This document shows, piece by piece, positions 3,588 to 14,717 of a DNA stretch of 64,000 nt. This DNA comes from Verrucomicrobiota bacterium (GTDB taxonomy: Bacteria; Verrucomicrobiota; Verrucomicrobiia; Verrucomicrobiales; DEV007). The position numbers and the translations under genes are program-made. The stretch is taken from NCBI GenBank assembly GCA_018970725.1, contig JAGWVU010000026.1, positions 1-64,000 on the forward strand. The letters run 5' to 3'. Within the stretch, counting starts at the first letter, position 1. Every line of letters starts with the position of its first letter. The notes under the pieces were generated by a model. It had not been told where the DNA came from and made no database searches. It saw nothing but the letters and a program-made list of their open reading frames with translations.

Positions 3588-4487
3588 TCATTCCGGGCTG
3601 GAATCCAACTCCGGCCGGAAGTCGGCGGCATGGTAGGAACTGCGGACGAGAGGACCGGAAGCGACATGGCGGAAACCCTTGCTTTGGGCCACGGTCTTGT
3701 ACTGCGCGAACTTGTCGGGATGGATGTAAGCGACGACCGGGAGGTGGTTTTGGGAGGGGCGGAGGTATTGTCCCAGGGTGAGGACGGTGACTTGGTGGGC
3801 GCGCAGGTCGTCCATGGCTTGGAAGAGTTCCTCTTCGGTCTCGCCGAGTCCGAGCATGAGGCCGCTTTTGGTGGCCACGGAAGGGACCATTTCCTTGGCC
3901 TTGGCGAGGACTTCGAGAGATCGGTGGTAGCGGGCCCGGGAACGCACCAGTGGAGTGAGACGTTCGACGGTTTCGAGGTTGTGGTTGAAGATGTGAGGGC
4001 GCGCCTCCATCACCGTGTGGAGGGCTTCGTCTTTTCCGTTGAAGTCGGGCACGAGAACCTCGATGACGATGCCGGGGTTGGCCTCGCGCACGGCTTCGAT
4101 GGTGCGGGCGAAGTGTCCGGCGCCGCCATCCGGTTCGTCGTCCCGGGCCACGGCGGTGATGACCACGTGGTTGAGGCGGAGCCGTTTGGTGGCTTCGGCA
4201 ACGCGCCCGGGTTCATCCGCCTCCAAGGGAAACGGTTTGGCGGTCTTGACCGCGCAGAAGCCGCAGGCGCGGGTGCAGCGGTCTCCCGCGATCATGAAGG
4301 TGGCGGTGCCTTGTCCCCAACATTCCCAGCGGTTGGGGCACTGTGCCTCCTCGCACACGGTATGGAGGCGGAGGTCCGAGACGAGTGCCTTGGTGGACCA
4401 GAAAACCGGGTTGTTGGGGAGACGGACCTTGATCCATTCCGGTTTGCGCTCCTGATGGAGTTGGGGATCGATCGTGGGCTTAGGCAT
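3588..4487 (-). CDS. lipA: Lipoyl synthase
   Basis: 299-aa radical SAM enzyme that inserts two sulfur atoms into protein-bound octanoyl groups to make the lipoyl cofactor of 2-oxoacid dehydrogenases and the glycine cleavage system. The auxiliary cluster cysteines appear as C45, C50 and C56 (CEEAQCPNRWEC) and the radical SAM triad as C71, C75 and C78 (CTRACGFC). The C-terminal RSSYHA motif, whose serine ligates the auxiliary cluster, is present. Length is normal. The ATG at 4487 lies inside the end of recR (8-base overlap), so the two are likely co-transcribed. No lipB is in the window. Confidence 0.97.
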   Translation of the reverse strand: MPKPTIDPQLHQERKPEWIKVRLPNNPVFWSTKALVSDLRLHTVCEEAQCPNRWECWGQGTATFMIAGDRCTRACGFCAVKTAKPFPLEADEPGRVAEATKRLRLNHVVITAVARDDEPDGGAGHFARTIEAVREANPGIVIEVLVPDFNGKDEALHTVMEARPHIFNHNLETVERLTPLVRSRARYHRSLEVLAKAKEMVPSVATKSGLMLGLGETEEELFQAMDDLRAHQVTVLTLGQYLRPSQNHLPVVAYIHPDKFAQYKTVAQSKGFRHVASGPLVRSSYHAADFRPELDSSPE

Positions 4488-5094
4488 CGTGGGAAAGGTT
4501 GCGGCGGTGCTGGAAGGCCCGGTGCAGTGTCAGGGAGTCCGCGGTGTCCAGACCTCCCCCGACCGGCATTCCTTGGGCCAGACGGGTCAGACGCACATTC
4601 GACGAACGGAGAATTTCCGCCAGATAATTCGCCGTGGCTTCGCCCGCGACATCGGCCCCGGTGGCGAGGACCACTTCCTCGAATTCTCCGGTGCGGATCC
4701 GGTCCATCAATTCTCCGATCCGCAGATCCTCTGGTCCGACATTGTCCAACGGCGCGAGGCGTCCGCCGAGCGCGTGGTAATGACCGCGAAAGGCCCCGGT
4801 CCGTTCGATGGGGAGAATGTCGGTCGGTTGTTCAACGATGCAGAGGAGGCGGGGATCGCGATCCGGAGCCTGACAGATGGCGCAGCCTTCCCGGGTAGCG
4901 AAGAATCCGCAGGAAGCGCAGGGTTTGATTTCCTGTTCCACCTGGACCAAGACCTCGGAGAGGGCGGCGAGGGTGCCGACGGGTTGTTGCAAGAGCCACA
5001 ACGACATCCGCTCCGCACTGCGCGACCCGATGCCGGGGAGGCGTTTGAGGTGGAGGATGAGCGATTGAAGTGCGGTGGGGTATTCGAGATTCAC
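4480..5094 (-). CDS. recR: Recombination mediator protein RecR
   Basis: 204-aa RecR, which works with RecF/RecO to load RecA at single-strand gaps. Visible parts: helix-hairpin-helix PGIG at residues 20-23, a four-cysteine zinc motif (C59, C62, C71, C74) and the Toprim domain from about 82 (CIVEQPTDI...FRGHYHALGG). Length fits the family. The start codon is GTG at 5094. The next upstream gene, the degenerate cyclase, ends 16 bases away, and lipA overlaps its 3' end, so it sits in the middle of a tightly packed minus-strand run. Confidence 0.97.
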   Translation of the reverse strand: MNLEYPTALQSLILHLKRLPGIGSRSAERMSLWLLQQPVGTLAALSEVLVQVEQEIKPCASCGFFATREGCAICQAPDRDPRLLCIVEQPTDILPIERTGAFRGHYHALGGRLAPLDNVGPEDLRIGELMDRIRTGEFEEVVLATGADVAGEATANYLAEILRSSNVRLTRLAQGMPVGGGLDTADSLTLHRAFQHRRNLSHDA

Positions 5095-5110: not shown

Positions 5111-6415
5111 TCAGAGGGATTGGAGGATTCGGGCGTGACCGTGACGGAGCAGGGGTTGCCCGGTGGCCAGTTCCTTTTGAGGGGAGTCCACGAGGCGGTC
5201 CTGCGCGCGCCCGATGAGATACTGCAGAGGACGGTCGAGCGGATGCGCGGAATGCAAACGGCTGAAAATGAGGAGAGCTTCTTCGGCGCGGCCTTCCCGG
5301 TAAAAAATCACGGCTTCCCAGAAATCCCGGATGCGCTGGTGATCTTCCTCGGTGAGGGCGTCCTGGCGGTCGACGAGTTCGTGGATTTCCGACATCACCT
5401 CCCGGCGGGTGTCGTAAACGAGTTCCATGGGCCGGGAGGCGAACACCTGGCGCACGGCGGCGTAGGTGTTTCCGCCGAGCAACACGAGGGAACCGTAGTC
5501 GCGGTTCGCCCCGGCGATGCGTCGGGTGGAGTCGATCAGGTCGCCTGTGGCGCTGAGGCGCGCGGCGTTGTCGGATTCGTAGATTCCGACCGTCATGAGA
5601 CCGGTCTCGATGGCCATCCCGCACTCGAGACGGTGGAAGTAGCGGCTCTCGAGGAGTTGGTTGAGGTTGCCGAGGCGGAGACGCAAATCCAAGGCGGCCT
5701 GGCAGGCGGCGGTGGCGTGATCCTCCTCCGGGGAGAGGAGGCCGAAGTAAACCCGGACACATTCCGGGTTGGATTCGTCCAGATAGCCGCCGCGACCGGT
5801 GAGGAATTCCCCTGAATTGCGGAGGAACAGATTGGTGACTTCGAGAATCTGGGCTGGACTCATCTCCTCCCGGAGCTGGTCGAGATTGAAAATGCGGACG
5901 GTCACCGCGGTGACCTGGAGATTCTGGCCGTTGAGAAACGAAGGGGCGGGTCCTTCCAACAGGCGGGCGCAGGCGGTCTGCGAAATCCGTCCGCCGAGGA
6001 AGCGTTGCAGTCGGCGCTTGCGGCTGCCCGGCTCGGTCGCGGAGTAGGCCAGGCCAAGGGCGGTGGTCACGAGGATGGCGACCAGCGAGGAGAAGGGCTC
6101 GAAGAAAATCCCGGACATGGCGAGGGTCAACGAAAGCGCTACCAGAAGCAGGGAACCGCCGATGACCACGATCCCCTTGTGGACGGGTTGGGGGATATCG
6201 ACCACGGCCCAGGCGTTTGCCAGGGCGACGAAAATGAAGGCGAATCCGGGCAATCCGCGGTGGGCGGGCCCGATACCGCCGATCCAACCGGCGTTGGTGT
6301 AGCAGGTGGCCAGTTTCCGGGCAAAGTGGTGGAGCACGCCGAACTCAAAGAGCAGCGACGTGGTCAAAACGCCGATCGCGCCGATCACCAGGGCGATGAA
6401 AAGATACCTGCGCAT
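5111..6415 (-). CDS. Membrane protein with degenerate class III nucleotidyl cyclase domain
   Basis: 434 aa. About four hydrophobic segments lie at the N-terminus (roughly 2-22, 56-74, 82-102, 108-126), then a class III adenylate/guanylate cyclase fold at about 165-330 and a helical C-terminal region. The family resemblance is clear (GYLDES...VRVYFG, then TGDLIDSTRRIAGA, matching the usual IGD-x-V-N-x-A-x-R-L-x-A block), but key residues differ. The first metal Asp of F-A-D-I is Arg174, the second metal Asp is Glu218 and the adenine-selecting Lys is Glu214. It is therefore probably catalytically dead and acts as a binding or scaffold module (inference). It follows the AAA+ and kinase genes with a 15-base gap. 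Confidence 0.75.
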   Translation of the reverse strand: MRRYLFIALVIGAIGVLTTSLLFEFGVLHHFARKLATCYTNAGWIGGIGPAHRGLPGFAFIFVALANAWAVVDIPQPVHKGIVVIGGSLLLVALSLTLAMSGIFFEPFSSLVAILVTTALGLAYSATEPGSRKRRLQRFLGGRISQTACARLLEGPAPSFLNGQNLQVTAVTVRIFNLDQLREEMSPAQILEVTNLFLRNSGEFLTGRGGYLDESNPECVRVYFGLLSPEEDHATAACQAALDLRLRLGNLNQLLESRYFHRLECGMAIETGLMTVGIYESDNAARLSATGDLIDSTRRIAGANRDYGSLVLLGGNTYAAVRQVFASRPMELVYDTRREVMSEIHELVDRQDALTEEDHQRIRDFWEAVIFYREGRAEEALLIFSRLHSAHPLDRPLQYLIGRAQDRLVDSPQKELATGQPLLRHGHARILQSL

Positions 6416-6430
6416 CCGTGGAATGGGTCG

Positions 6431-8068
6431 CTAAGGGAGGGGGGTGGGGGCGTCGCTTCCGGGCTCGCATCCGGACGGGGCGGCGGCCCGTGCATAGGAT
6501 TGGGCAACGAGATCGCTGAGGTAAGGGGAAGGATTGAGCACGGCGGCGCGGGAGAGGAGGAACTCCGCCTGCCCCGTGTTTTTTTGGATCAGGCTGAGCC
6601 CGAACTGGTAATCCCGGAAGACCCGTTTGCAGACTTGCAGCGCGCTGGTGCAGTCGGCCCGGGCCTTGGTTGCCAAGGCTTCCACCGCGTCATCGGCAAA
6701 GAGGATTGCGAGGCCGTGCTTTTCCTGAAAGTCCTGCCGAAAAAGATCCACCTCCGCCGCGGCCTGTCGCTGAAAATCGCCCTGGCATTCGGCGAGGAGT
6801 CGTTGCAAGGCGTCGGCGGGATTTTTCACCAGGTCCGCATCGATCACCAACTCGGTCACCGAAGTCCCCGGCAGTTCGAACTTGAAGTCGCGCAGCAACC
6901 GTTCGCAGACGGTCATGAGACCACGCGCGCCGGTCTGTTCGACCTCGGCCTGGGCCGCGATTCCGCGCAAGCCGGAATCGGTGAACCGGGCGGTGATGCC
7001 GAAGGCGTCGAAGTCCCGCTCGTATTGGTGGATGAGGCTTCCCTCGGAATCCTTGAGGACCGAGAAAAGTTCCGCGGCCCGCAGCGGTTCGCAGACGACC
7101 CGGACCGGGAGCCGACCGATGAATTCCGCCTCGAACCCGAAGTCGAGGAAGTCCCGGGTGGTCGCGTCGCGGAAGAGTTCGTGGTCCAGGGTGAGCGAGC
7201 GGCGGTCCGCGCCAAAGCCCATGGTTCCCTGGCGAAGCCGGTCGCTGATGATGGTTTCGAGACCGGAAAACGCCCCGCTGGCGATGAAGAGGATGTTCCG
7301 GGTATTGATCGTTTGGGGAGGGGTGTTGAAGGGGCTCTTTGCAAAGGCCGCCTGCCAGTATGAGGAGAGATCCCCCGCAGGGCGCACCTGGACATCGGTT
7401 TCTTCCATCAGCTTGAGCAGCGTGGTTTGCACGCCGCGCCCGCTGACGTCACGCCCGATCATCGAGCCTCGCGTGGCCAGCTTGTCGATTTCATCGATGT
7501 AGACGATTCCATACTGCGCCAGCAAGAGGTCTCCCCGCGCCTTTTGCACCAGCTCGCGGATGAGATCGTCGACATCCGCTCCAACGTAACCGGTCTCGCT
7601 GAATTTCGTGGCGTCGGCTTTGACAAAGGGGACACCGATGAGATCGGCGATATGCTTGACGAGGTAGGTCTTGCCCACGCCGGTGGGACCGATGATGAGA
7701 ACGTTCTGCTTGGCAAGCTCAACCTGCCGGGCCAGAGCGGGATCTTCCTGCTCTAAACGTCTGATGGTCCGGGCGTGGTTGTAGTGGTCGCACACCGCGA
7801 TGGCGAGCGCCTTTTTCGCTTCGTCCTGTTTGATGACGAAGCGATCGAGATGCGCCTTGATGTCCCGGGGACGAAATTTGAAGTCGAACACCGCATCGAG
7901 GGGGGACGGTTCAGGAGCGGGTCTCTCTTCCCGGGGCATCCGCGCGAACTCTTCCTTGCTGGGGAACGAATTGGAGGAGGCTTGTTCGGCAAACTTCGCC
8001 TTCAAGAATTCGACCATTTTGCGGTTCAACTCCTCCAGCGAGTCGGGACGATCGTCACCCTTGTCCAT
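6431..8068 (-). CDS. ClpX-like AAA+ ATPase without zinc domain
   Basis: 545-aa AAA+ ATPase most like the protease unfoldase ClpX. Walker A GPTGVGKT is at 127-134, a ClpX-type pore loop GYVG at 160-163, Walker B IVYIDEID at 188-195 and a sensor-2 GARG at 380-383. A loop reading MGFGA (283-287) sits where ClpX has the IGF loop that docks ClpP. The ClpX N-terminal zinc-binding domain is missing, replaced by about 60 non-cysteine residues, and there is a C-terminal extension of about 130 residues that I do not recognise. The ATG at 8068 was chosen because upstream codons are antisense of the kinase. It is not the housekeeping ClpX; its client is unknown. The kinase gene ends 61 bases upstream. 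Confidence 0.8.
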   Translation of the reverse strand: MDKGDDRPDSLEELNRKMVEFLKAKFAEQASSNSFPSKEEFARMPREERPAPEPSPLDAVFDFKFRPRDIKAHLDRFVIKQDEAKKALAIAVCDHYNHARTIRRLEQEDPALARQVELAKQNVLIIGPTGVGKTYLVKHIADLIGVPFVKADATKFSETGYVGADVDDLIRELVQKARGDLLLAQYGIVYIDEIDKLATRGSMIGRDVSGRGVQTTLLKLMEETDVQVRPAGDLSSYWQAAFAKSPFNTPPQTINTRNILFIASGAFSGLETIISDRLRQGTMGFGADRRSLTLDHELFRDATTRDFLDFGFEAEFIGRLPVRVVCEPLRAAELFSVLKDSEGSLIHQYERDFDAFGITARFTDSGLRGIAAQAEVEQTGARGLMTVCERLLRDFKFELPGTSVTELVIDADLVKNPADALQRLLAECQGDFQRQAAAEVDLFRQDFQEKHGLAILFADDAVEALATKARADCTSALQVCKRVFRDYQFGLSLIQKNTGQAEFLLSRAAVLNPSPYLSDLVAQSYARAAAPSGCEPGSDAPTPLP

Positions 8069-8129
8069 GAGGATGGAGCATCGGCGAGGAGCAAGGATCC
8101 GACAAGTCCAACTCACTTCGGACCGAACG

Positions 8130-10406
8130 TCAGGGCGCGAGAGTGAGGGCTTCCCATCGGTCCGCGAAGCCCGGAAGCTCGTGAAGCTTTCGCGAGAGAT
8201 CCTTGGCGTAGGCTTGATCATCGCTGAGCCAGGCGAAAAAGGCGGCGCGCTCCAGCAGGTCGGGTCCGGCGCTGGTGAGGAAGGTTGCCTTCGCGATCTG
8301 GAGGATTCCGGCGGAGGAGATGGCGTCGAGGGCGATCGGAGTGGGGCCGAAGCCCAAGTCCACAAGAAGTTTGTCCGCGGTTGCGGAGACGATGCGGGCG
8401 GCGAAAGGAGGCCCGCTGGTGCGGAGGATCGAGCCGGAGTAGGCGGCCTCGCCGACCAGGGAAACGAAGTCGGAGACAAACTGTCCGGCGCGGGTGCAAG
8501 CCTCGCCGGCGAGGCGGGTTCGTTCGCGTCCCCAATCGGAGGTGGGCTTGGCCCCGGCCCAGGCTGCGGCTGCGGCGGCGAAGTCGCGGGACTTGGCGAA
8601 GCCCGCCGCCTTGGCGGAAGTCTCCCGGAGCAGGTCATTGTCCTTGGCCTTGGCCTGCTCGAGCCCCTTGATCTGCACCTGGACCAAGGCGGCTCCGAGC
8701 CGGGTGATCTGCCCTTGGGCGAATTGGCGGGCGGACTCGCTCCGCAGTTTGGCGAACAACCCGGTCCAGGCGTCGAGCGCCAGCTGGAGGGAAGCGGGGT
8801 CGTCCTTGGCCGGTTCCCCCGGTGGTTTGGCGAGGAGACGGGCGTCCGCGAGAGCGGATTGGCAGGCTCCTTGGTAGAGGCCTTTCCAAGCTTCCCCGGG
8901 TGGAAACTTCGCCTCGCGGTAGCGTTCGAGAAAAGTCGCCGCCGCCGGGTAATCCCCGGCGAACAGGGCGCGGAAACCGAGGGGAAGGGCGGCGAGGGAA
9001 TCATCGGCCGGGGCGGTTCCCTTTTCCACCGTCTCGAACCACGCGGCGAGGTCGGGGGCAGCCTTTTTTGCATGGGCGGTGGCCAAGGCGCTCAGGCGCT
9101 GGGACTCCGGGGCCTTTCCCTTGAGGGCTGCCTCGATGGACAGGTGGAAAGCGGCCCACGCCCGGAGATCGGCGCGGAGCTTGTCGTCCTGCTCCGCTTG
9201 GGCGAAGAGGTCCAAAGCCGCGGTGGTGTGGCCCTCCGCATACCGTTTGCGGGCGATTTCCACGGAGCGCAGACGGGCGGTTTCATCCGCGGACACGATC
9301 AGTTCGGTGCCGCCGCTCTGGAGGAGGGGGGGAGGATTTGAGCCGCTCTTGGCGGCGTCTCCCTTGGGCTTGAACATTTGCGCGGCCAACGCGAGAAGGA
9401 GCAGCCCGGCGAGCGCGCCGGAAGCGGCCTGGATCCAGACCGGGCGGTTTCCGGGGCGCCCCGGGGCCACGAAATTCGGGTCGGCGGCGGCCCGGGCCTC
9501 CTCGATCGCGCGGATCAGGTCCGGGTAGTTGCTGAAACGATCCTTGGGATCGAAGGCCATCATCCGGTTGACGAGGGCGATGGTGCGACCGCGGAGGCGG
9601 GGTGCGGCGGCGCGGAGGTTGGCCGGTTGGGACTTGATTTTCAGGATTTCCGCCGTCGAGACGGTGTCGACCGAGTGGGGCGGTTGACCGGCGAGCAGGT
9701 GGAAGAGGGTGGCACCCAGGCTGTAGATATCCCCGCGGAGATCATCCGGGAGCCCCTGCAATTTCTCCGGCGGGACGTAATGAGGCGTGGCCCAGACGTC
9801 CCCCATGACCTCCTCGGTGCCGAGGATCAGGGCCAAACCGAAATCGACCAGTTTGGCGGTCCCGCTCCGATCGAAGAGAATGTTCCCGGGTTTGATATCG
9901 CGGTGGATCAGGCCGATTTTGGCGGCGGCGGCAAGGCCGAGGGCGATCTCGTGGATAAGCCGGAGGGCGACGGCCTCGGGGAGCGGTCCGTTGGCCAGTT
10001 TGGCATCCAGATTTTCACTCTGGAGCAATTCCATGGCGATGTAGAAGTAACCTTGGTCCCGGCCGACGGAGAAAATCTGGACGACGTTGGCGTGGTTGAT
10101 CGAGGCGGTGAGGCGTGCCTCTTTTTCGAATTGATCGCTCAGCTCGGGTTGGTCGCCGAAATGGGAGTGGAGGACCTTGAGGGCGACTTCGCGTCCGAGA
10201 GTGCTGTCATGGGCCCGGAAGACCCGGCTCATCCCGCCCTCGCCAATTTCGGCGAGGATGGTAAACTTGCCGAAGTTGATCCGAACCCGGACCGGTTGGC
10301 CGCAGTGAGGGCAGGAGATTCTCTCAAACGGTCTTACGGCGCTGACATCGATGACTCCAGCGCATTCCGGACAGGTGTTCAACAACGGTGCGGAAGAATT
10401 GGGCAT
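8130..10406 (-). CDS. Membrane-anchored Ser/Thr protein kinase with zinc ribbon
   Basis: 758-aa Hanks-type kinase. An N-terminal zinc ribbon uses C12, C15, C32 and C35. The kinase domain spans about 46-310: glycine loop GEGGMSRV (55-62), ATP lysine K77, catalytic HRDIKPGN (168-175) and DFG (188-190), so all key residues are intact. One membrane segment lies at about 325-344, followed by a roughly 410-residue helical, alanine-rich region that would face the periplasm and may bind ligand or partner. It is the first gene of a minus-strand run with the ClpX-like ATPase and the pseudocyclase, which suggests a signalling unit (inference). Such kinases are common in Planctomycetes and Verrucomicrobia. 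Confidence 0.9.
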   Translation of the reverse strand: MPNSSAPLLNTCPECAGVIDVSAVRPFERISCPHCGQPVRVRINFGKFTILAEIGEGGMSRVFRAHDSTLGREVALKVLHSHFGDQPELSDQFEKEARLTASINHANVVQIFSVGRDQGYFYIAMELLQSENLDAKLANGPLPEAVALRLIHEIALGLAAAAKIGLIHRDIKPGNILFDRSGTAKLVDFGLALILGTEEVMGDVWATPHYVPPEKLQGLPDDLRGDIYSLGATLFHLLAGQPPHSVDTVSTAEILKIKSQPANLRAAAPRLRGRTIALVNRMMAFDPKDRFSNYPDLIRAIEEARAAADPNFVAPGRPGNRPVWIQAASGALAGLLLLALAAQMFKPKGDAAKSGSNPPPLLQSGGTELIVSADETARLRSVEIARKRYAEGHTTAALDLFAQAEQDDKLRADLRAWAAFHLSIEAALKGKAPESQRLSALATAHAKKAAPDLAAWFETVEKGTAPADDSLAALPLGFRALFAGDYPAAATFLERYREAKFPPGEAWKGLYQGACQSALADARLLAKPPGEPAKDDPASLQLALDAWTGLFAKLRSESARQFAQGQITRLGAALVQVQIKGLEQAKAKDNDLLRETSAKAAGFAKSRDFAAAAAAWAGAKPTSDWGRERTRLAGEACTRAGQFVSDFVSLVGEAAYSGSILRTSGPPFAARIVSATADKLLVDLGFGPTPIALDAISSAGILQIAKATFLTSAGPDLLERAAFFAWLSDDQAYAKDLSRKLHELPGFADRWEALTLAP

Positions 10407-13553: not shown

Positions 13554-14717
13554 ATGGCGGAACGTTTTCCCAGACGAGTGTTCATCAGCTACAGTCGGCG
13601 GGACCGGGACTGGTTGGACCGGGTTATGGCCCACCTGGCTCCCCTGCGGCATGAAAATCTGATCGAGGCATGGATCGATTCCGGAAAGATCGATTACGGC
13701 GACCGGTTCAACGAGGAGATTGCCCGTGCGATTGACACGAGCCGGGCCGCGCTCCTGCTGGTGAGTCCGAATTTCCAAAACTCGAGATTCATCGTGGATC
13801 ATGAATTGCCTCGTTTGTTGGGGCATGCGGATGCCGGGGACCTGAAGTTATATTGGCTGTTGGTGAGCGATTGCCTCCTCGCCGACAGTCTTGCCGGGGT
13901 CTACCAATGTGCCAATGATGCGGGTCAGGCGTTGGAGGCCCTCACCGCGGCGGAAGTCAACGGGGTTCTGGCGCGTCTCAGTCGGGATGTGGCGCATGCC
14001 GCTTGCGAATGGGCGCAAACAGGAGCGGAGGTGAGGGAGGAGAGTGAGGGCCTGGTCCCCGGCAAGTTCACCAATTCGCTGGCTATGCCTTTCGCGCCGG
14101 TGCCGGGGACCCGGGTGCTGTTCAGCAAGTGGCTCACCCGGGTTCAGGATTACGCCCTGTTTGCGGCGGAATGCTCCGCGGCGCGGTGGAAGTGGAAAAA
14201 GGCCGCGCTGAAGCAAGGGCGGGATCATCCCGTGGTGCGGGTGACATGGCAGGAGGCGGCCGCGTTTTGCGCGTGGTTATCCCAACGGGAGGGGGTGCGC
14301 TATCGTCTTCCCTGTGACGCCGAGTGGACCTTGGCCGTGGGCGGAGGGGACGGGACGGAACCCGCTTATCCATGGGGCAGCGAGTGGCCGCCGCCACCGG
14401 GCTCGGGCAATTATGCGGGGGACGAAGCCAAGGGAATGGGCGTCTTGCGCATCGGAGGGTATCGCGACGGGCATCCCTTCACCGCTCCTGTGGGAAGCTA
14501 TGCGCCGAATCGATTCGGCCTCTACGATCTGGGGGGCAATGTCTGGGAATGGTGTGCGGACGCCTGCGGCCCGGCGTCGAGTCGCCGCATGGTGAGGGGC
14601 GCTTCCTGGCGCGACAGCCAGCCCCGAGAATTGGCGGGCGCTGCCAGGGTCATGAGGAATCCCGCACGCGGGTATGACGACACCGGATTCCGTTGTGTGT
14701 TGGAATGGGCGGGCTGA
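13554..14717 (+). CDS. TIR domain-SUMF1 (FGE-like) fusion protein
   Basis: 387 aa. Residues 1-100 form a TIR domain: RVFISYSRRDRDWLDRV, then SRAALLLVSPNFQNS, then a DHELP motif holding the glutamate expected for NAD+ cleavage. Residues about 175-387 form a SUMF1/FGE-like domain: FTNSLAMPFAPVPGT, RYRLPCDAEW, YPWGSEWPPPPGSGNY, GLYDLGGNVWEWC, MVRGASW. The paired catalytic cysteines of true formylglycine-generating enzymes (usually just after RGGSW) are absent, so this is a binding fold rather than a sulfatase maturase. No signal peptide; likely cytoplasmic. A defence or signalling role is inference from TIR families; neighbours are housekeeping genes. Confidence 0.88.
   Translation: MAERFPRRVFISYSRRDRDWLDRVMAHLAPLRHENLIEAWIDSGKIDYGDRFNEEIARAIDTSRAALLLVSPNFQNSRFIVDHELPRLLGHADAGDLKLYWLLVSDCLLADSLAGVYQCANDAGQALEALTAAEVNGVLARLSRDVAHAACEWAQTGAEVREESEGLVPGKFTNSLAMPFAPVPGTRVLFSKWLTRVQDYALFAAECSAARWKWKKAALKQGRDHPVVRVTWQEAAAFCAWLSQREGVRYRLPCDAEWTLAVGGGDGTEPAYPWGSEWPPPPGSGNYAGDEAKGMGVLRIGGYRDGHPFTAPVGSYAPNRFGLYDLGGNVWEWCADACGPASSRRMVRGASWRDSQPRELAGAARVMRNPARGYDDTGFRCVLEWAG

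What the first reader, a model, noticed from the sequence alone, without database searches (positions are those of the whole stretch)
5111..10406. Kinase, ClpX-like ATPase and pseudocyclase as one regulatory operon
Three unusual proteins (membrane Ser/Thr kinase, ClpX paralogue with altered ends, catalytically dead cyclase with membrane anchor) are packed with gaps of 61 and 15 bases. The order kinase, unfoldase, cyclase-like receptor suggests a signalling-to-proteolysis or remodelling pathway that I do not recognise as described.
Basis: partly seen in the sequence, partly recalled or inferred. Interest (0 to 1): 0.6.

Follow-up and report, generated by a model that had tools for sequence, protein, structure and literature searches.

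The report
Second ClpX with kinase, dead cyclase
A bacterium of the Verrucomicrobiota group carries a second, altered copy of the protein-unfolding machine ClpX, encoded beside a membrane kinase, a cyclase that appears to have lost its catalytic site, and the DNA-repair gene recR; the set recurs in many relatives, so it probably marks an unstudied, membrane-linked protein-degradation pathway.

Summary
Confirmed: kinase, ClpX-like and cyclase-like genes lie 61 and 15 bases apart; recR and lipA continue the run. 'ClpX2' forms a clade apart from ordinary clpX. In 162 of 162 copies it keeps the core ATPase and pore residues and the ClpP-docking [IMLV]GF loop. It lacks the zinc finger (CxxC in 1 of 162) and RKH loop (0 of 162) and has a duplicated small domain. 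The kinase looks active. The cyclase-like protein has the class III fold, but metal Asp-1 and the catalytic Asn are each lost in 28 of 30 copies. Linkage is wide but modular: kinase beside ClpX2 in 24 of 40 loci, full cyclase-like gene in 23 of 41, all with recR in 11 of 35. Away from ClpX2 the cyclase-like gene still precedes recR, 12 of 12. So two modules, kinase-ClpX2 and pseudocyclase-recR, are often joined. Most likely a specialised ClpP-dependent unfoldase tuned by membrane partners; the signalling is inferred, not shown.

The parts
8130..10406 (-). KIN: membrane Ser/Thr kinase, 758 aa: Cys4 zinc ribbon, Pkinase domain, one membrane segment, about 410-aa C-terminal part
10302..10373 (-). 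Cys4 zinc ribbon (C12, C15, C32, C35): present in 41 of 43 distinct KIN copies, the other 2 being gaps
9531..10262 (-). Kinase domain; K77, D170, D188 intact
9372..9443 (-). Hydrophobic segment 322-345 of KIN (predicted membrane span)
6431..8068 (-). ClpX2: ClpX paralogue, 545 aa, without N-terminal zinc finger, with extra C-terminal domain
7214..7222 (-). MGF: counterpart of the ClpP-docking IGF loop ([IMLV]GF in 162 of 162)
6815..7087 (-). First (ordinary) AAA+ small domain, residues 328-418
6485..6760 (-). Second, duplicated small domain, residues 437-528
5111..6415 (-). CYC: four-helix membrane domain, degenerate class III cyclase domain, C-terminal TPR-like helices, 434 aa
6038..6415 (-). 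Membrane domain of CYC (residues 1-126); the part kept in short relatives
5894..5896 (-). R174 of CYC at the position of metal-binding Asp-1 of class III cyclases
4480..5094 (-). recR, 16 nt after CYC
3588..4487 (-). lipA (lipoyl synthase), overlaps recR by 8 nt

Best explanation
The locus encodes a specialised second ClpX (ClpX2) together with membrane regulators. ClpX2 is an active ATP-driven unfoldase that docks on the cell's ClpP. It has dropped two parts by which ordinary ClpX takes clients (the zinc-binding domain and the RKH loop) and gained a second small domain, so it should handle a different, narrower set of substrates. The four-helix membrane protein with a dead cyclase domain and TPR-like tail acts as a membrane-bound, non-enzymatic adaptor or receptor. 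The transmembrane Ser/Thr kinase switches the system by phosphorylating ClpX2 or the adaptor. Shown here: domain make-up, conserved active-site and docking residues, loss of cyclase catalytic residues, the domain duplication, one clade for ClpX2, recurrent gene linkage. Inferred: ClpP partnership, changed substrate choice, adaptor role, phosphorylation, common transcript.
For: Walker A K and T, pore-1 Y, Walker B D and E, and Arg finger in 162 of 162, sensor-2 R in 161 of 162 (1 gap), docking tripeptide [IMLV]GF in 162 of 162 distinct ClpX2; RKH in 0 of 162; CxxC in the N-terminal part in 1 of 162. Best structural neighbours of the model are ClpX chains: Z 32.9, 303 residues, 2.0 A. Second small domain: profile-profile probability 97.8%, E 1.3e-12; the same profile also matches the preceding small domain in many ORFs. 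The genome has one full-length ClpP (256 bits), beside canonical clpX. ClpX2 is one clade apart from 13 canonical ClpX (support 99). KIN directly upstream in 24 of 40 loci, with 1-nt gaps or overlaps of 4-8 nt in some. CYC: cyclase fold; Asp-1 and Asn each lost in 28 of 30 readable copies; short relatives keep only the membrane domain, next to ClpX2.
Against: No expression, interaction or activity data. The [IMLV]GF loop could be kept for other reasons. Genes separate in many relatives: kinase not next to ClpX2 in 16 of 40 loci, no CYC at all next to it in 13 of 41; only 1 of 53 and 4 of 56 class- and phylum-level loci have them. CYC occurs with recR in genomes without ClpX2 (G037, G044, G050), so it need not serve ClpX2. 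Housekeeping neighbours (rluD, recR, lipA) suggest that part of the linkage is plain retained gene order. Consensus promoter and terminator scans gave nothing above shuffles.
Confidence: 0.45

Rival explanations
1. Retained gene order only: rluD, kinase, ClpX2, CYC, recR and lipA sit together by common descent and share at most a transcript, not a pathway.
For: Flanks rluD, hemW-like, crtB-like, recR and lipA are kept in several genera as well. In distant lineages ClpX2 stands beside other genes such as a ubiE-like methyltransferase gene (my reading of the listed sequence). Linkage states change 7 (kinase), 8 (CYC) and 10 (recR) times on the tree.
Against: The pairs KIN-ClpX2 and CYC-recR survive relocation: g2 genomes keep KIN-ClpX2 in 3 of 4 loci while CYC-recR sits elsewhere as a pair. 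Gene overlaps occur.
Confidence: 0.3
2. ClpX2 is a ClpP-independent remodeller, for instance of membrane complexes or of RecR assemblies, with CYC as its membrane anchor.
For: Loss of zinc finger and RKH loop, added domain, membrane neighbour kept even where the cyclase domain is lost.
Against: The ClpP-docking tripeptide is invariant in form in 162 of 162, which a ClpP-free machine would not need; ClpP is present in the genome.
Confidence: 0.2
3. CYC and recR form a functional pair of their own (membrane tethering or regulation of RecR), and ClpX2 with its kinase is a separate unit that only happens to lie upstream.
For: CYC precedes recR in 20 of 22 ClpX2-linked loci and 12 of 12 unlinked ones, including three genomes without ClpX2.
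Against: In f4 g24 and Roseibacillus-type loci the short CYC relative stays with ClpX2 while recR is not next to it; G009 and G013 keep CYC with ClpX2 but not with recR.
Confidence: 0.3
4. CYC still makes a cyclic nucleotide, alone or as a heterodimer.
For: Cyclase fold with model confidence 87; Asp-2 is Asp in 14 and Glu in 9 of 30 copies; Arg kept in 24 of 30.
Against: Asp-1 and Asn are lost in 28 of 30 each; no copy shows the full set.
Confidence: 0.03

Closest known systems
ClpX (ATP-dependent Clp protease ATP-binding subunit)
   Same: AAA+ core, pore-1 GYVG, Walker motifs, Arg finger, IGF-type loop; about 40% identity over residues 66-420 to canonical ClpX in these genomes; PDB ClpX best by sequence and structure
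   Different: No zinc-binding domain, no RKH loop, second small domain, under the NCBIfam equivalog cut-offs
Myxococcus xanthus ClpX3 (PMC11423568, passages read)
   Same: An extra ClpX copy without the N-terminal domain and without RKH, isolated in the genome; loss of it reduces growth at 36 C
   Different: 43.5% identical to E. coli ClpX; the passages I read mention no extra small domain and no kinase or cyclase neighbour; not compared by sequence here
Class III adenylate/guanylate cyclases: CyaB (3r5g), Cya2 (2w01), Rv1625c/Cya (7yzk)
   Same: Fold of the cytosolic domain; membrane domain followed by a helical linker, as in Rv1625c
   Different: Four predicted spans rather than six in Rv1625c (abstract start), metal Asp-1 and Asn lost, TPR-like tail
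PknB-type bacterial Ser/Thr kinases
   Same: Kinase domain with intact catalytic residues and one membrane span
   Different: N-terminal Cys4 ribbon; C-terminal part has no Pfam family

Membership tests
ClpX | AAA+ ATPase core with Walker A/B, Arg finger, sensor 2 | tested here: met
   162 of 162 (161 of 162 for sensor 2, 1 gap)
ClpX | ClpP-docking IGF-type loop | tested here: met
   [IMLV]GF in 162 of 162; MGF in the window, aligned to IGF of ClpX
ClpX | N-terminal Cys4 zinc-binding domain (PF06689) | tested here: not met
   one search finds PF06689 only in the canonical clpX (C14); CxxC in 1 of 162 ClpX2
ClpX | RKH pore loop | tested here: not met
   0 of 162
ClpX | NCBIfam equivalog cut-off | tested here: not met
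   334 of 359 and 305.8 of 370.75 bits
ClpX | Degrades substrates with ClpP | not testable with these tools
   needs purified proteins
Class III nucleotidyl cyclase | Cyclase fold | tested here: met
Class III nucleotidyl cyclase | Two metal-binding Asp, transition-state Asn and Arg | tested here: not met
   window R174, E218, D295, R298; Asp-1 kept in 2 of 30, Asn in 2 of 30
PknB-type Ser/Thr kinase | Catalytic Lys, HRD Asp, DFG Asp and a membrane span | tested here: met
   residues in 41 to 42 of 43, the rest gaps; span 322-345 in the window copy
PknB-type Ser/Thr kinase | PASTA repeats of the equivalog model NF033483 | tested here: not met
   227 of 450 bits, only model positions 7-273 of 563 matched

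The most novel reading that the evidence does not exclude
A membrane-tethered second ClpXP system: an envelope-facing Ser/Thr kinase and a dead-cyclase receptor deliver selected substrates to ClpX2-ClpP and link that proteolysis to RecR-dependent DNA repair, as a lineage-specific stress circuit of Verrucomicrobiota.
Probability: 0.12. Interest if true: 0.8.

Novelty: new variant of a known kind. Interest (0 to 1): 0.57.

Why it matters
Here a phylum keeps a second ClpX, found in 102 of 387 genomes drawn evenly, with the ClpP-docking loop untouched but substrate-entry parts missing and a domain doubled. It offers a natural experiment on what the ClpX zinc finger and RKH loop do, and a candidate for kinase-controlled proteolysis. 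The pseudocyclase-recR pair is a testable lead for a membrane-linked step in recombination repair. My searches listed no paper on this ClpX2 or on this gene set; the library lacks most subscription journals.

Tried and rejected
Rejected: (1) 'The three genes are the unit': kinase-ClpX2 and CYC-recR separate as pairs. (2) 'Active cyclase': rejected on residues. (3) 'ClpX2 is just clpX': canonical clpX with zinc finger lies beside clpP on C14 and the tree splits them. (4) HslU: its model scores 194 of 362 bits, against 306-334 bits for the ClpX models. (5) A dedicated second ClpP: only one full-length ClpP in the window genome; the second, weak hit was not followed.

Led nowhere: promoter/terminator scan (1 promoter-like and 9 terminator-like sites, at the shuffle level); upstream genes of recR in genomes where it is not behind a linked CYC (8 of 9 loci had no CYC match upstream, L263 had one); literature searches. 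The long-branch third ClpX copies make their own place in the tree unsure (warnings). The spread of ClpX2 beyond Verrucomicrobiota was tested only by one pattern-based scan (223 relatives, the best 80 shown; 79 of 80 assigned to Verrucomicrobiota and 1 unassigned; 143 not seen). No listed row covers the extra domain beyond about residue 431, which is no proof of a new fold.

Counts and dropped rows: one search pooled the relatives, named (L084-L163) and phylum loci; the named set partly repeats the same genomes, so rows with the same last 250 residues were merged. One search counts use the 46 relatives loci (45 genomes; G051 is split on two contigs); loci too near a contig end were left out of each denominator. 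The window's kinase state, misread as 0 because of a longer mechanical ORF, was set to 1 by hand. Phylum synteny used loci of 60 of the 102 genomes with a match. The tree left out four partial ClpX2 loci and dropped one of seven third copies. Two CYC rows with 15-17% identity (L066, L074) were left out of the CYC profile used from then on, so those loci count as short/divergent. The 12 unlinked CYC loci are the 11 matches of at least 170 bits that lie on another contig than ClpX2 or in a genome without it (the second half of a gene split between contigs in G030 left out), plus G011 (122 bits). G029 was not fetched. One of 31 CYC rows is a fragment readable at Asp-1 only (it shows R); I set it aside, hence 30.
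Full report
What is there. On the minus strand five genes follow each other: a membrane Ser/Thr kinase (KIN, 10406-8130), a ClpX paralogue (ClpX2, 8068-6431), a cyclase-like membrane protein (CYC, 6415-5111), recR (5094-4480) and lipA (4487-3588), with gaps of 61, 15 and 16 nt and an 8-nt overlap. Upstream an rluD-type gene runs the other way (the name is my reading).

ClpX2. The genome also has an ordinary clpX with zinc finger next to clpP and a third, remote copy. ClpX2 matches the ClpX equivalog models under their cut-offs and PDB ClpX chains best. Full or partial copies occur in 46 of 57 relatives (my count from the table; one of them a C-terminal fragment). In 162 distinct copies the Walker, pore-1 Tyr and Arg-finger residues and the docking tripeptide [IMLV]GF never fail; a CxxC is seen N-terminally in 1, RKH in 0. 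The C-terminal extension (437-528) is a second AAA+ small domain: profile-profile probability 97.8%, a similar order of helices and strands in the model (mean pLDDT 77, pTM 0.60), and its profile finds both copies in many ORFs. It fills fewer than 40 of 85 columns in 2 of 162 copies. On a tree with 13 canonical ClpX and 6 other copies, 102 ClpX2 form one clade (support 99, with long-branch warnings for the other copies). With that domain as query, 102 of 387 genomes of the phylum have a match; none of the g19 genomes listed there does.

Kinase. Cys4 ribbon, Lys, HRD and DFG residues are intact in 41 to 42 of 43 distinct copies, the rest being gaps. One hydrophobic span at 322-345. It is one of 11 Pkinase hits in the genome.

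Cyclase-like protein. No Pfam family for the window copy; 7 of 22 aligned members match Guanylate_cyc. The profile finds Cya2, CyaB and CyaC structures, and the model (mean pLDDT 87) matches the same folds and the membrane cyclase Rv1625c. The position of metal Asp-1 is Arg in 23 of 30 and Asp in only 2; the catalytic Asn is Asn in 2 of 30. Neither the two copies with Asp-1 (L172, L177) nor the two with Asn has the full set. In loci titled Akkermansiaceae, Rubritalea, Roseibacillus and Persicirhabdus, and in f4 g24, a short relative keeps only the N-terminal membrane part, so the membrane part outlasts the cyclase part.

Linkage. In the relatives set: KIN directly upstream of ClpX2 in 24 of 40 loci, full CYC downstream in 23 of 41 (5 more short or divergent), recR near in 24 of 40; of 35 loci with all states known 11 have all three and 4 none. 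In the 56 class- and phylum-level loci: KIN 1 of 53, CYC 4 of 56, recR 4 of 55. L182, outside the order, shows KIN-ClpX2-CYC-recR-lipA in full, and L217, from a 0.92 Mb contig, ClpX2-recR-lipA. Where CYC lies away from ClpX2, or ClpX2 is missing, it is still followed by recR in 12 of 12 loci; beside ClpX2 in 20 of 22. g2 genomes keep KIN-ClpX2 in 3 of 4 loci while CYC-recR sits elsewhere.

How it likely works. The constant docking loop and the single full-length ClpP suggest that ClpX2 shares ClpP with ClpX. Loss of the zinc finger and RKH loop points to other substrates; the link of the RKH loop to ssrA recognition is taken from the discussion of PMC11423568 (passages read). CYC and KIN would then be membrane-bound control. 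All of this is inference. The alternative that gene order is merely retained remains strong, as does the reading of CYC-recR as a separate pair.

Known comparison. Myxococcus xanthus ClpX3 also lacks the N-terminal domain and RKH, and its loss reduces growth at 36 C (PMC11423568, passages). I did not compare its sequence. Searches of the open library (listings and starts of abstracts only, apart from PMC11423568) listed nothing on a verrucomicrobial ClpX with two small domains or on this gene set.

Verdict. A real, conserved, apparently undescribed variant of ClpX with membrane partners; the pathway is a hypothesis.

Noticed in passing
G000:C47:46994-48016 (locus L009): Third ClpX-type protein (576 aa, 34% identical to ClpX2) with a long own C-terminal part; remote extra copies also in G014, G015, G020, G024, G030, G042 and G053.
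   Followed up: partly
window 13554-14717 (+): 387-aa ORF that reads like a TIR domain at its start and a formylglycine-generating-enzyme domain at its end (my reading, no family search run); a 79% identical copy lies in the same place in G002.
   Followed up: no
   Followed up: no
window 4480-5094: RecR's Cys4 zinc-finger model scores under its cut-off (14.7 of 22 bits).
   Followed up: no
L087, L088, L093, L103, L116, L128, L136, L159: Short membrane proteins (174-303 codons between stops) between ClpX2 and recR that match only the membrane part of CYC.
   Followed up: partly
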